Below are positions 10,662 through 16,919 of a stretch of 16,919 bases of DNA, in pieces (position 1 is the first letter of the stretch; each line of letters opens with the position of its first letter). A program made the position numbers and the translations under genes. Origin of the DNA: JACRDV01 sp024860865 [NCBI: Methanobacteriota archaeon] (GTDB lineage Archaea; JACRDV01); the NCBI GenBank assembly GCA_024860865.1, contig JACRDV010000095.1, positions 1 through 16,919 on the forward strand. The letters are read 5' to 3'. The notes beneath the pieces are model-generated. The model did no database searches. It saw only the letters and a list, made by a program, of their open reading frames with translations, and was not told where the DNA came from.

Positions 10662-11783
10662 CTAGTCTCTCACCATGAATTTCTCTAAAAGATCTTTGGC
10701 TTTTTCCCGCTTTCTTTGATGCTCGCTTAAAAATTTGTTTACATAATTGGCAAGTATCTCTTTGTCCTCGCCACAGAGTATCTCTCCATTTTTACATTTT
10801 CTATAGATTTCTTTTATTTTTCCATCATCTTTTTCAAAAAGAATGTAAAGCCAATGATAGACAGAGCAAATCTCTGGGATTCCCCCTTTCTCTCTTTGCT
10901 CTTTAACAGTTGCACGGCCTCCAGTAAAGGCGTTCCAAACTTTTTTCTTAGCATATTCAAGAGAATCTGTTGTATATACACAAGTCTCTGGGAGACTTGC
11001 GCTCATCTTGCCACCTTGGCCTAGTCCAGGTAAGAACTTGCAATAAATTCCAGCTGGTTTGTGAAGTCCAAGCTTTGGGGCAACATCTCTTGCTACTCGC
11101 CAGTAGGGTTCTTGGTCCACGGCGCAAGGAATTAAACAACGCTCGTTTTGACCCTCAAACAACTGGGCCATGAATGCTGGGACTGCTTGCATAGCTGGAA
11201 AAAATATGATTCCAATATTTGAAGTACTATTAAATCCAAAAACAGCTTTAGCCGTAGAAAATGGAATATGTTTTGCTATTTGAAGCGCCATTTTATATTG
11301 TGTCTTTGCGTATTCTATATTTGAAAAGATTTTAGTTTTTTTCGGGTCGAAGCCAAGAGCAATCACATCTAGCGCGTTATCATATGTAAAACCAATTGTT
11401 TGCTCTAATGTAAGCTCTGGTTTGATTAGAAATTTTTCATCATCCGTCATTTGGAAGTATAATTTAGCATCAAAAACATCTTGCAAGTGTTTTGTAAATA
11501 TCCACGGTATAATATGGCCAAGGTGAGTATGTCCAGAAGGCCCTCTACCTGTATAAAGCACAAATTTTTGTCCGCGCTCATAGGAATCAAGCACGTGATT
11601 AAAGTCTCTATGGGAAAAGAAAAATTTTCTTCTTAAAAACATGTGCAATTCTTTTGTATGCTTCTTTATCCTTTTCAGTAACTTATCTGTTATCGGTTCA
11701 ACACCAAATTCTTCAATCAGTTTTTCATAATCTATTTCTCCAGAGACTTCCCAAGGAGTTACGACGAACTTCTTCTTTTGCAT
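10662..11783 (-). CDS. trpS: Tryptophanyl-tRNA synthetase (archaeal/eukaryotic type)
   Basis: Class I synthetase charging tRNA-Trp, 373 residues. The HIGH-like signature is GPSGHTHLGH (81-90) and the KMSKS-like signature is GKMSAS (258-263). The N-terminal VTPWEVSGEIDYEKLIEEFG is characteristic of the archaeal/eukaryotic TrpRS subgroup, as is AVDQEPYWRVARDVA. A strong ribosome binding site AGGTGGGAG lies directly before ATG 11783. It is the first gene of the minus-strand operon with pheS, pheT and the hexuloisomerase. A 65-base T-rich gap separates it from endA, so it probably has its own promoter. Confidence 0.95.
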   Translation of the reverse strand: MQKKKFVVTPWEVSGEIDYEKLIEEFGVEPITDKLLKRIKKHTKELHMFLRRKFFFSHRDFNHVLDSYERGQKFVLYTGRGPSGHTHLGHIIPWIFTKHLQDVFDAKLYFQMTDDEKFLIKPELTLEQTIGFTYDNALDVIALGFDPKKTKIFSNIEYAKTQYKMALQIAKHIPFSTAKAVFGFNSTSNIGIIFFPAMQAVPAFMAQLFEGQNERCLIPCAVDQEPYWRVARDVAPKLGLHKPAGIYCKFLPGLGQGGKMSASLPETCVYTTDSLEYAKKKVWNAFTGGRATVKEQREKGGIPEICSVYHWLYILFEKDDGKIKEIYRKCKNGEILCGEDKEILANYVNKFLSEHQRKREKAKDLLEKFMVRD

Positions 11784-11800
11784 TCTCCCACCTTAATAAC

Positions 11801-11841
11801 AAAAAAACAAAAATATTATTGTGAATAAATGGTAAAATACC
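11801..11841 (-). promoter_or_regulatory. endA-trpS gap: T-tract and TATA-like sequence
   Basis: On the minus strand the gap reads, in order, a TATA-like stretch around 11841-11823 (TTTTACCATTTATTC) and then T-rich tracts (11813-11801). The first could drive trpS and the second could end the endA transcript. Both are eye predictions. Confidence 0.3.
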
Positions 11842-11848
11842 TTTTTAA

Positions 11849-12397
11849 CTACGGCTTAACTCGCTCGAGCCGATAATAAGTAACATCGCCTTCTTCATCA
11901 ACTATTCCTAAAAATAATTCTTTACGAACTGCTCTTGCCAGTCTGGTCATCCCAGAAAGATCTTGTGTAGTTAAAGAGTCGCCTTCTTTAATAGCATGGA
12001 CTAAGTAATCTGAGTGAGCTTCACCTGGTTTACCCCCTCTATAAACCCTAAAGTGAGTGCCAAATTTAAACCCAGTTTTGACGTAGTACCCTCGACTCTT
12101 AAGCTCCCGATAGACTACAAAACGAGTTCGAATGTCCGGTTCAAGCTGAGATGCCTTCCTTAACAAGTCATCAAAATTTAGTTCTTTACCAGTTTCTTCG
12201 TCTTTTACTTTAATCCTCCCTTTTTCAAACAAAAAAAGGGCTTCAACTAGAGACACCTCCAACTTGCTGCCTGAGAGAGGGGTGCCAAAGTAACCCTTTT
12301 GATAAAGTTCGTTTCCAGCTACTTCATCCCAAACTATTACCTTGTCCTTTAATAGGGTAGCTTCAACGGGTGGAGGTAGGGGGAGTTGTTGCTCCAT
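11849..12397 (-). CDS. endA: tRNA-splicing endonuclease EndA
   Basis: Archaeal RNA-splicing endonuclease, 182 residues, which cuts bulge-helix-bulge structures in pre-tRNA, pre-rRNA and some pre-mRNA. The catalytic triad is visible: Tyr119 in GTHFRVYRGG, His128 in GEAHSDYLVH and Lys159 in RAVRKEL, followed by the conserved GIVDEEGDVTYYRLER ending. The length fits the ~180-residue class, which forms a homotetramer, or the catalytic subunit of an alpha2-beta2 enzyme. No second subunit is in this window, so the type is undecided. It starts with ATG 12397 after GAGG and is divergent from the CooT-like gene. Its substrate class matters here because a protein-gene BHB intron is predicted at 16677-16714. 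Confidence 0.94.
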   Translation of the reverse strand: MEQQLPLPPPVEATLLKDKVIVWDEVAGNELYQKGYFGTPLSGSKLEVSLVEALFLFEKGRIKVKDEETGKELNFDDLLRKASQLEPDIRTRFVVYRELKSRGYYVKTGFKFGTHFRVYRGGKPGEAHSDYLVHAIKEGDSLTTQDLSGMTRLARAVRKELFLGIVDEEGDVTYYRLERVKP

Positions 12398-16543: not shown

Positions 16544-16919
16544 TTGAGGACATATCCACGCTGTGTTACTCCTGGATTTACTCCATTTGACCCAGTGGAG
16601 CTAGCGAAAGAAACTGAGAAAATTGTTTGTGTAGGGAATAAACGCAAGTATACTAATTTCTATGCCACTGGCGTATATGTATTGTAAAAGTTTTTACATT
16701 GCAATATAGCGCGAACGGTGGTATAGCTACTGGATACGCGATAGGCTGCATGTTGCGCTGCGTATTTTGTTGGATTGATTTCTCTCGAGAATTTCCGGAG
16801 AAATATGGAAATTTTTACTCGCCAGAAGAAGCATTTAACAAACTAAAAGAAGCTGCTCATAAATATGGAGTTCGCAAACTTCGCATCTCAGGAGCCGAGC
16901 CAACTCTTTGCAAAGAACA
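16544..16919 (+). CDS. Radical SAM protein, intron-containing, 3' partial: join(16544..16676,16715..16919)
   Basis: Radical SAM enzyme whose 3' end is outside the window. After joining across the predicted intron, the frame reads RKYTNFYATGVY then GGIATGYAIGC, then the cluster motif C56-x3-C60-x2-C63 (CMLRCVFCW), FYSPEEA and RISGAEPTL. The YGGIAT-x-x-x-x-GC-x-x-RCVFCW pattern recalls a family of archaeal radical SAM proteins of unknown reaction; most relatives have SGGEPT where this has SGAEPT. The start is TTG 16544, the only start codon after the in-frame stop at 16532, with GTGAGG (16531-16536) as ribosome binding site. Unspliced, translation would stop after 47 residues (TAA 16685-16687) before the cluster motif, and the downstream part is in another frame. 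If the insertion is not spliced, this is a pseudogene. Confidence 0.75.
16677..16714 (+). other. Predicted 38-nt bulge-helix-bulge (BHB) intron in the radical SAM gene
   Basis: The exons pair as 16661-16670 with 16716-16725 (10 bp, two G-U). A 3-nt bulge follows on the 3' strand (16713-16715). A 4-bp central helix pairs 16671-16674 (GCGT) with 16709-16712 (GCGC, one G-U). A 3-nt bulge lies on the 5' strand (16675-16677). An 8-bp intron helix pairs 16678-16685 with 16701-16708 (two G-U) and closes a 15-nt loop. This is the canonical hBHBh' order with correct handedness. Cutting each bulge between bases 2 and 3 gives cuts at 16676/16677 and 16714/16715. This removes 38 nt and joins T to AC as a Tyr codon, restoring the frame (TGVY-GGIAT). 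EndA, which cuts such motifs, is encoded at 11849-12397. Confidence 0.82.

What the first reader, a model, noticed from the sequence alone, without database searches (positions are those of the whole stretch)
16661..16725. Canonical BHB intron (38 nt) inside a protein-coding radical SAM gene
Seen in sequence: the radical SAM frame is interrupted, and the two halves rejoin perfectly if 16677-16714 is removed. The junctions sit in a full hBHBh' motif (10-bp exon helix, 3-nt bulge, 4-bp helix, 3-nt bulge, 8-bp intron helix). The EndA cut rule (between bulge bases 2 and 3) independently predicts the same 38-nt removal that the protein alignment requires, recreating a Tyr codon. Established: archaeal EndA splices BHB introns from tRNA, rRNA and cbf5-type mRNA; introns in other archaeal protein genes are rare as far as I know. 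Inference: this is a real, possibly undescribed mRNA intron.
Basis: partly seen in the sequence, partly recalled or inferred. Interest (0 to 1): 0.95.

Follow-up and report, generated by a model that had tools for sequence, protein, structure and literature searches.

The report
Intron inside an archaeal enzyme gene
An archaeal enzyme gene is interrupted by 38 bases folded into the shape that the tRNA-splicing machinery is known to cut out, and short interruptions of the same kind turn up in the gene for the ligase that should rejoin the pieces, in this archaeon and 15 others.

Summary
Removing 16677-16714 restores a radical SAM frame that aligns without a gap, 77% identical over 112 of 112 residues, to an uninterrupted homologue. 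The insert lies in a complete hBHBh' motif: 11-bp exon helix, 3-nt bulge, 4-bp helix, 3-nt bulge, 10-bp intron helix. Four removals fit the protein; only the one set by the EndA rule has this geometry. The genome shows one EndA gene (in the window), one rtcB gene and intron-rich tRNA genes.

That rtcB gene has its own 31-nt BHB intron. Fifteen other archaeal genomes also carry short inserts in rtcB: 21 in all, 28-32 nt, in three short conserved regions; 18 of 21 have strict EndA geometry at a protein-consistent junction. Protein-gene BHB introns thus reach beyond cbf5. Thirteen of 14 carriers checked show a single EndA gene, which does not fit the proposal that heteromeric EndA gave rise to them.

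Splicing is inferred; no RNA data were available. New variant of a known kind; the recurrent rtcB introns are the larger finding.

The parts
16544..16676 (+). exon 1 of the radical SAM gene (TTG start; ends after the first base of a Tyr codon)
   Evidence: starts where homologue L032 starts
16677..16714 (+). 38-nt BHB intron with an in-frame TAA at 16685-16687
16715..16919 (+). exon 2 with the start of the radical SAM domain; the 3' part is lost at the end of the contig
   Evidence: a search of this genome with the C-terminal half of L032 gave only a 41% match on C142
16660..16670 (+). exon helix, 5' arm (pairs with 16716-16726)
16716..16726 (+). exon helix, 3' arm
16671..16674 (+). central 4-bp helix, 5' arm (exon side; pairs with 16709-16712 in the intron)
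16709..16712 (+). central 4-bp helix, 3' arm (intron side)
16675..16677 (+). 5' bulge AUA; cut predicted after 16676
16713..16715 (+). 3' bulge GAA; cut predicted after 16714
16678..16708 (+). intron helix 16678-16687/16699-16708 (10 bp) and its loop
11849..12397 (-). endA, tRNA-splicing endonuclease (182 aa, N and C domains); the only PF01974 match found in this genome

Best explanation
16677-16714 is a 38-nt archaeal BHB intron in the mRNA of a radical SAM gene. The transcript folds so that the two exon ends pair with each other and with the intron; the genome's EndA cuts both 3-nt bulges between bases 2 and 3; RtcB joins the exons at a rebuilt Tyr codon (U|AC). Shown by sequence: the frame break, the restored protein, the motif geometry, the presence of EndA and RtcB genes, homologues without the insert, and a second intron of the same kind in the only rtcB gene found. 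Inferred: cutting, joining and translation of the spliced mRNA. If the rtcB mRNA needs splicing too, the cell must make RtcB with the help of RtcB already present, which could act as a feedback on splicing capacity (inferred).
For: Spliced protein aligns gap-free to L032 (77%, 112 of 112) and across the junction to L034-L040, L002 and L003. One of four protein-consistent removals has EndA geometry. Fold z -5.27; 0 of 2,000,000 random removals reach inner >=8 with outer >=8; at 60 C the minimum-energy fold has the BHB form. EndA matches 1a79 over residues 16-182, E 6.3e-33. One RtcB gene. ARAGORN with introns allowed: 17 of 22 tRNA calls carry an intron, 15 of 20 after removing two genes seen twice. 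The same test on rtcB: 21 inserts in 16 genomes, 18 with central 4/4 and inner >=4 at a protein-consistent junction. In six of nine Tyr-codon cases only one removal restores the Tyr, and in those six all 54 of 54 tested pairs are standard.
Against: No RNA evidence. The gene is cut by the contig end, so its C-terminal half is unseen. At 37 C a fold without the 5' bulge is 1.1 kcal/mol better. No other match listed has this insert, so this one site rests on geometry and homology alone. Five distant relatives (L007, L010, L013, L014, L023; 45-52% identical) have one extra residue just before the Tyr, L030 aligns with a two-residue gap there, and L033 lacks the Tyr: the protein varies a little at the junction. 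The start codon is TTG.
Confidence: 0.92

Rival explanations
1. Decaying gene: a hairpin-forming 38-base insertion has killed the gene and is not removed.
For: This site was seen in one genome only, and the gene's 3' half is missing from the assembly.
Against: Both exons are conserved and open (77% to L032); a random insertion would hardly place both EndA cuts at the junction (0 of 2,000,000 random removals reach its helices); the only rtcB gene found has the same arrangement.
Confidence: 0.05
2. Translational bypass: ribosomes hop over the insert.
For: A strong hairpin follows the exon end.
Against: Bypass needs matching take-off and landing codons (recalled from T4 gene 60); the in-frame codons before the stop are GTA TAT GTA TTG and the codon before re-entry is AAC, so none match (read). 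Insert lengths in rtcB vary from 28 to 32 nt.
Confidence: 0.01
3. Assembly or sequencing artefact in a fragmented genome.
For: 160 contigs; the insert ends 205 bases from the contig end.
Against: A 38-base insert with EndA geometry is no usual error signature; G323, in one contig of 829,411 bases, carries two rtcB inserts with this geometry.
Confidence: 0.01
4. The BHB is cut, but the exons are not rejoined: cleavage serves to switch the gene off or to mature another RNA.
For: EndA also cuts rRNA precursors (PMC7714728, passages seen).
Against: The predicted cuts fall where joining restores the protein; an RtcB gene is present.
Confidence: 0.03

Closest known systems
cbf5 pre-mRNA introns of Crenarchaeota (Watanabe 2002, Yoshinari 2006, Yokobori 2009; of PMC2738675 I saw passages and one part of a section; the other two papers not seen)
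   Same: Short BHB introns (16-44 bp there) in a protein-coding frame, the EndA cut rule, and an interrupted codon in an important part of the protein
   Different: Those are mostly relaxed BHB forms tied to heteromeric EndA in Desulfurococcales and Sulfolobales; here the motif is a full hBHBh', one EndA gene was found, and the genes are a radical SAM gene and rtcB
HVO_1309 intron of Haloferax volcanii (PMC7714728, passages seen)
   Same: BHB intron of 46 nt in an mRNA, processed by EndA in vitro, circular intron sequenced
   Different: It lies in the 5' UTR and does not interrupt the reading frame
Archaeal tRNA and rRNA BHB introns
   Same: Same motif and, by inference, the same enzymes
   Different: Not in protein-coding frames
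Large insertions in rtcB, probably inteins, many at the Asn-Cys motif
   Same: Same gene, and one of the same regions interrupted
   Different: Insertions of about a kilobase that keep the frame open, removed (if inteins) from the protein and not from RNA

Membership tests
Archaeal BHB (EndA-spliced) intron | 4-bp central helix flanked by two 3-nt bulges on opposite strands | tested here: met
   at 37 C a fold without the 5' bulge is slightly better
Archaeal BHB (EndA-spliced) intron | cuts between bulge bases 2 and 3 join the exons so that the mature product is restored | tested here: met
Archaeal BHB (EndA-spliced) intron | organism encodes EndA with conserved catalytic residues | tested here: met
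   Y119, H128 and K159, counted in the alignment, stand opposite the 1a79 residues that I recall as the catalytic triad
Archaeal BHB (EndA-spliced) intron | RtcB ligase present | tested here: met
Archaeal BHB (EndA-spliced) intron | spliced RNA and circular intron observed | not testable with these tools
   no transcript data at hand
cbf5-type pre-mRNA intron | relaxed BHB cleaved by heteromeric EndA | tested here: not met
   full hBHBh' motif; one PF01974 match in a genome 92% complete; subunit make-up inferred from gene content
cbf5-type pre-mRNA intron | located in cbf5 | tested here: not met
   radical SAM domain PF04055
Group I or II intron | match to a ribozyme family; length of hundreds of bases | tested here: not met
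   no Rfam match at gathering score in the window; 38 nt
Translational bypass element | matching take-off and landing codons | tested here: not met
   read: GTA, TAT, GTA, TTG against AAC

The most novel reading that the evidence does not exclude
Short BHB introns are a recurrent, gained-and-lost element of archaeal protein genes with a hot spot in rtcB, the ligase that seals BHB-spliced RNAs, so that the ligase is needed to make its own mRNA: a self-referential splicing circuit that tunes or latches splicing capacity. The introns may spread by insertion at T^AYGG-like sites, perhaps by reverse splicing followed by reverse transcription. Both introns of this genome sit at such a site, and 9 of the 22 introns do, though eight of these nine share one rtcB codon, where the protein dictates the motif.
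Probability: 0.4. Interest if true: 0.95.

Novelty: new variant of a known kind. Interest (0 to 1): 0.86.

Why it matters
In the papers I saw, archaeal pre-mRNA introns are confirmed only in cbf5 and in one 5' UTR. Here a radical SAM gene and, recurrently, rtcB join the list as predictions, in lineages where one EndA gene was found; this does not fit the view that relaxed, heteromeric EndA gave rise to mRNA introns (PMC2738675). Such genes look broken to a gene finder. The rtcB introns make intron gain and loss, and a possible self-referential loop in RNA splicing, directly testable.

Tried and rejected
A first scan loaded only the window; it was repeated as on the window and 20 stretches (209,754 bases, outer helix >=6; 122 hits against 77, 97 and 78 in three random versions). 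With a frame-joining test, L053 213-262, L060 5325-5356 and L056 1494-1590 stood out besides the window site; reading the joined proteins I took them for neighbouring genes, without a family search. The relaxed scan of 602,942 bases (window plus 60 stretches) gave 176 candidates, 96 after filtering, judged by eye only; none beyond the window site and rtcB convinced me. About 60% of the genome was not scanned. A hairpin of score 46.4 (L056 1564-1638) was not tested. The strict scan missed rtcB because its exon helix is weak. Rfam gave nothing at gathering score. Default ARAGORN found no tRNA in the window or in the first 20 stretches; with introns allowed, four in those stretches. A strict-motif search in tRNA introns was uninformative: 8 of 15 distinct ARAGORN introns are only 10-17 nt. 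One tblastn script printed nothing because of a wrong option and was repeated. One search gave unfiltered, cut output and was replaced. NCBIfam gives the radical SAM protein no name: no model reaches its cut-off. Not done: structure prediction, search of viral or metagenome contigs, search of the own genome for cbf5.

Full report
WHAT IS THERE. The window is the whole of contig C51 (16,919 bases) of a 1.54-Mb archaeal genome in 160 contigs, 92.45% complete. At its right end a frame starting at TTG 16544 encodes the N-terminus of a radical SAM protein, then meets TAA at 16685-16687; the cysteine motif lies in another frame. Removing 16677-16714 joins them into 112 codons. The joined protein hits PF04055 at 1e-9 and aligns end to end, without a gap, with L032 (Hadesarchaea MAG, 77%, 112 of 112); L034-L040, L002 and L003 also run through the junction. 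L033, whose protein otherwise reads like that of L032, lacks exactly the Tyr codon at the junction. Of the more distant relatives, L007, L010, L013, L014 and L023 have one extra residue just before the Tyr, and L030 aligns with a two-residue gap there; the protein is thus not quite constant at this point. Of 197 genomes (31 with a match) and 28 genomes (12 with a match), no listed match other than the window's own is split here. No NCBIfam model reaches its cut-off, so the enzyme's function is unknown.

GEOMETRY. Exon helix 11 bp, central helix 4 bp, two 3-nt bulges, intron helix 10 bp, all pairs standard. EndA cuts between bulge bases 2 and 3 remove exactly 38 bases. Four 38-nt removals give the same protein; only the EndA one has the geometry. 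Protein and RNA agree, but the protein alone fixes the junction only to within four positions. The fold is far better than shuffles; the motif tops a strict scan of 209,754 bases and a relaxed, frame-joining scan of 602,942 bases; random removals never reached its helices (0 of 2,000,000 with inner >=8 and outer >=8). At 37 C a fold that pairs the 5' bulge is 1.1 kcal/mol better than the best fold with both bulges open; at 60 C the minimum-energy fold has the BHB form. The temperature at which the organism lives is unknown.

MACHINERY. One EndA (PF01974) match was found in the genome: the window's own gene 11849-12397, 182 aa with both domains. It aligns with the solved EndA 1a79 (M. jannaschii, by recall; an alpha4 enzyme according to PMC7714728) over residues 16-182 without a long insertion; the best match among solved structures is 5x89, an EndA-like protein. 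It lies beside 10662-11783, which I take from its sequence, by recall, for a tryptophanyl-tRNA synthetase: the gene order reported for Haloferax endA-trpS1 (passages). tRNA genes are rich in introns: of 22 Rfam tRNA matches fetched with flanks, ARAGORN with introns allowed made 22 calls, 17 with an intron (15 of 20 after removing two genes seen twice), and found nothing in three loci; some anticodon calls look doubtful.

THE SECOND INTRON. Searching for RtcB gave one gene, on C15, in two pieces. Its frame breaks at HWG-Y-GFPIGG, and exactly one removal of 10-120 nt restores the Tyr: 31 nt, L057 89-119, with central 4/4, 3-nt bulges and a 10-bp intron helix. Its exon helix is absent in register (outer 0), so it is an HBh' rather than a full hBHBh' form. 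The joined protein scores 568.5 bits over the whole RtcB model. Since it is the only RtcB gene found and many tRNA genes have introns, a functional product is to be expected (inference; the genome is incomplete and another copy could be missing).

RTCB INSERTS ELSEWHERE. A junction-spanning query matched 239 of 247 archaeal genomes; its table of positions was cut, so I looked again only at 46 (this genome and 45 with several or weak matches). A short insert inside a single strong match would have been missed in the others. Most splits were about a kilobase or more with an open frame, as expected for inteins, many at the Asn-Cys motif; but G059, G154, G194 and G220 had short gaps. In the phylum of G059, 119 genomes drawn from a larger group were searched and 116 matched; short inserts showed in 11, G059 and G194 included. 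In the phylum of G154, 24 of 28 matched, with short inserts in G154, G198 and G212. Fetched and tested, 16 genomes including this one hold 21 inserts of 28-32 nt: 11 at or just after the Tyr codon, five at the His and Trp codons upstream, five near the Asn-Cys codons, whose Cys I recall as a metal ligand. For 18 of 21, exactly one protein-consistent removal has central 4/4 and inner helix >=4; the exceptions are G212 (central 4/4, inner helix 3 bp then a mismatch), G220 site 1 and G302 (central 3/4). Picking the best of several candidate removals favours structure, so the cleaner test is the Tyr codon: of nine cases examined, six have only one Tyr-restoring removal, and these show 54 of 54 standard pairs with differing pairs between genomes; in the other three, one of three or four candidates pairs fully. 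All candidates pooled, wrong ones included, 105 of 144 pairs are standard against a shuffled mean of 75.9 (maximum 92 in 5,000). Folded freely with 20-base flanks, 19 of 22 introns (the window's included) show at least 3 of 4 central pairs in the minimum-energy structure; the misses are L167, L180 site 1 and L197 site 3. For the window that fold has the central helix, but its intron helix stands in another register.

GAIN AND LOSS. In one genus (g47) G059 and G287 have the Tyr-site intron and G313 lacks it, with uninterrupted codons. Nine of ten intron-less rtcB loci fetched for comparison showed the motif with the Tyr; L207 did not match the pattern and was left out. A tree of 40 RtcB sequences (16 with introns, 24 chosen without) needs 12 changes of state, at least 9 forced by well-supported branches; the label is not clustered beyond chance (184 of 500 shuffles as low). 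The sample was picked to hold both states, so this is no rate. In L169, L196 and L197 the cut lies after the third base of the Tyr codon, in the other eight after the first, so at least two positions are used there.

ENDA TYPE. In 13 of 14 intron-bearing genomes tested, exactly one PF01974 match was found; G059 has a partial match plus a piece at a contig start. G198 and G212 were not tested. The proposal that mRNA introns arose with relaxed heteromeric EndA (PMC2738675) does not fit these lineages. Quaternary structure is inferred from gene content only.

HOW IT WORKS. Most likely as a cbf5 intron does: EndA cuts, RtcB joins. It differs in gene, in motif (canonical here, strong on the intron side in rtcB) and in EndA gene content. 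A ligase gene that needs ligation to be expressed implies feedback; whether it is used for regulation is open.

LITERATURE. Ten searches of the held library (several listings capped) showed no report of rtcB or radical SAM BHB introns. PMC2738675 says that splicing outside cbf5 was unconfirmed in 2009 but predicted, and cites putative 12-bp introns in an archaeal virus. PMC7714728 names cbf5 as the only other example in 2020. Of PMC13149111, PMC4090602, PMC12558985 and PMC12397907 I saw passages only; PMC12558985 mentions one circular RNA in a hypothetical protein gene of Halobacterium. Most subscription papers and bioRxiv preprints are not held, so novelty is limited to what this library shows.

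Noticed in passing
L057 89-119 (contig C15 of the same genome): 31-nt BHB intron in the only rtcB gene found; central helix 4/4 and 10-bp intron helix
   Followed up: yes
L167-L170, L173-L181, L196, L197: Short inserts in rtcB of 15 further archaeal genomes, in three short conserved regions, most with BHB geometry
   Followed up: yes
L033 176-508: Hadesarchaea DG-33 homologue lacks exactly the Tyr codon at the position of the window's intron, while L032 has it: possible scar of an imprecise intron loss, a plain deletion or an error
   Followed up: no
G064, G106 and G180 rows: rtcB open frames of 1,932-1,941 codons whose matches are split twice (near query residues 34 and 57), as if two inteins sat in one gene
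   Followed up: no
window 10662-12397: endA beside a probable tryptophanyl-tRNA synthetase gene (named by recall), as reported for Haloferax volcanii
   Followed up: partly
L063-L084: Most tRNA genes found in this genome appear to carry introns; a few anticodon calls (Stop TTA, SeC) look like misplaced introns
   Followed up: partly
L035 and L036: A genome labelled Dehalococcoidia bacterium carries two copies of the radical SAM gene, 69% and 70% identical to the window's protein: transfer or mislabelling
   Followed up: no
L056 1564-1638, - strand: Strong BHB-like hairpin (score 46.4) in A+T-rich DNA, not explained
   Followed up: no
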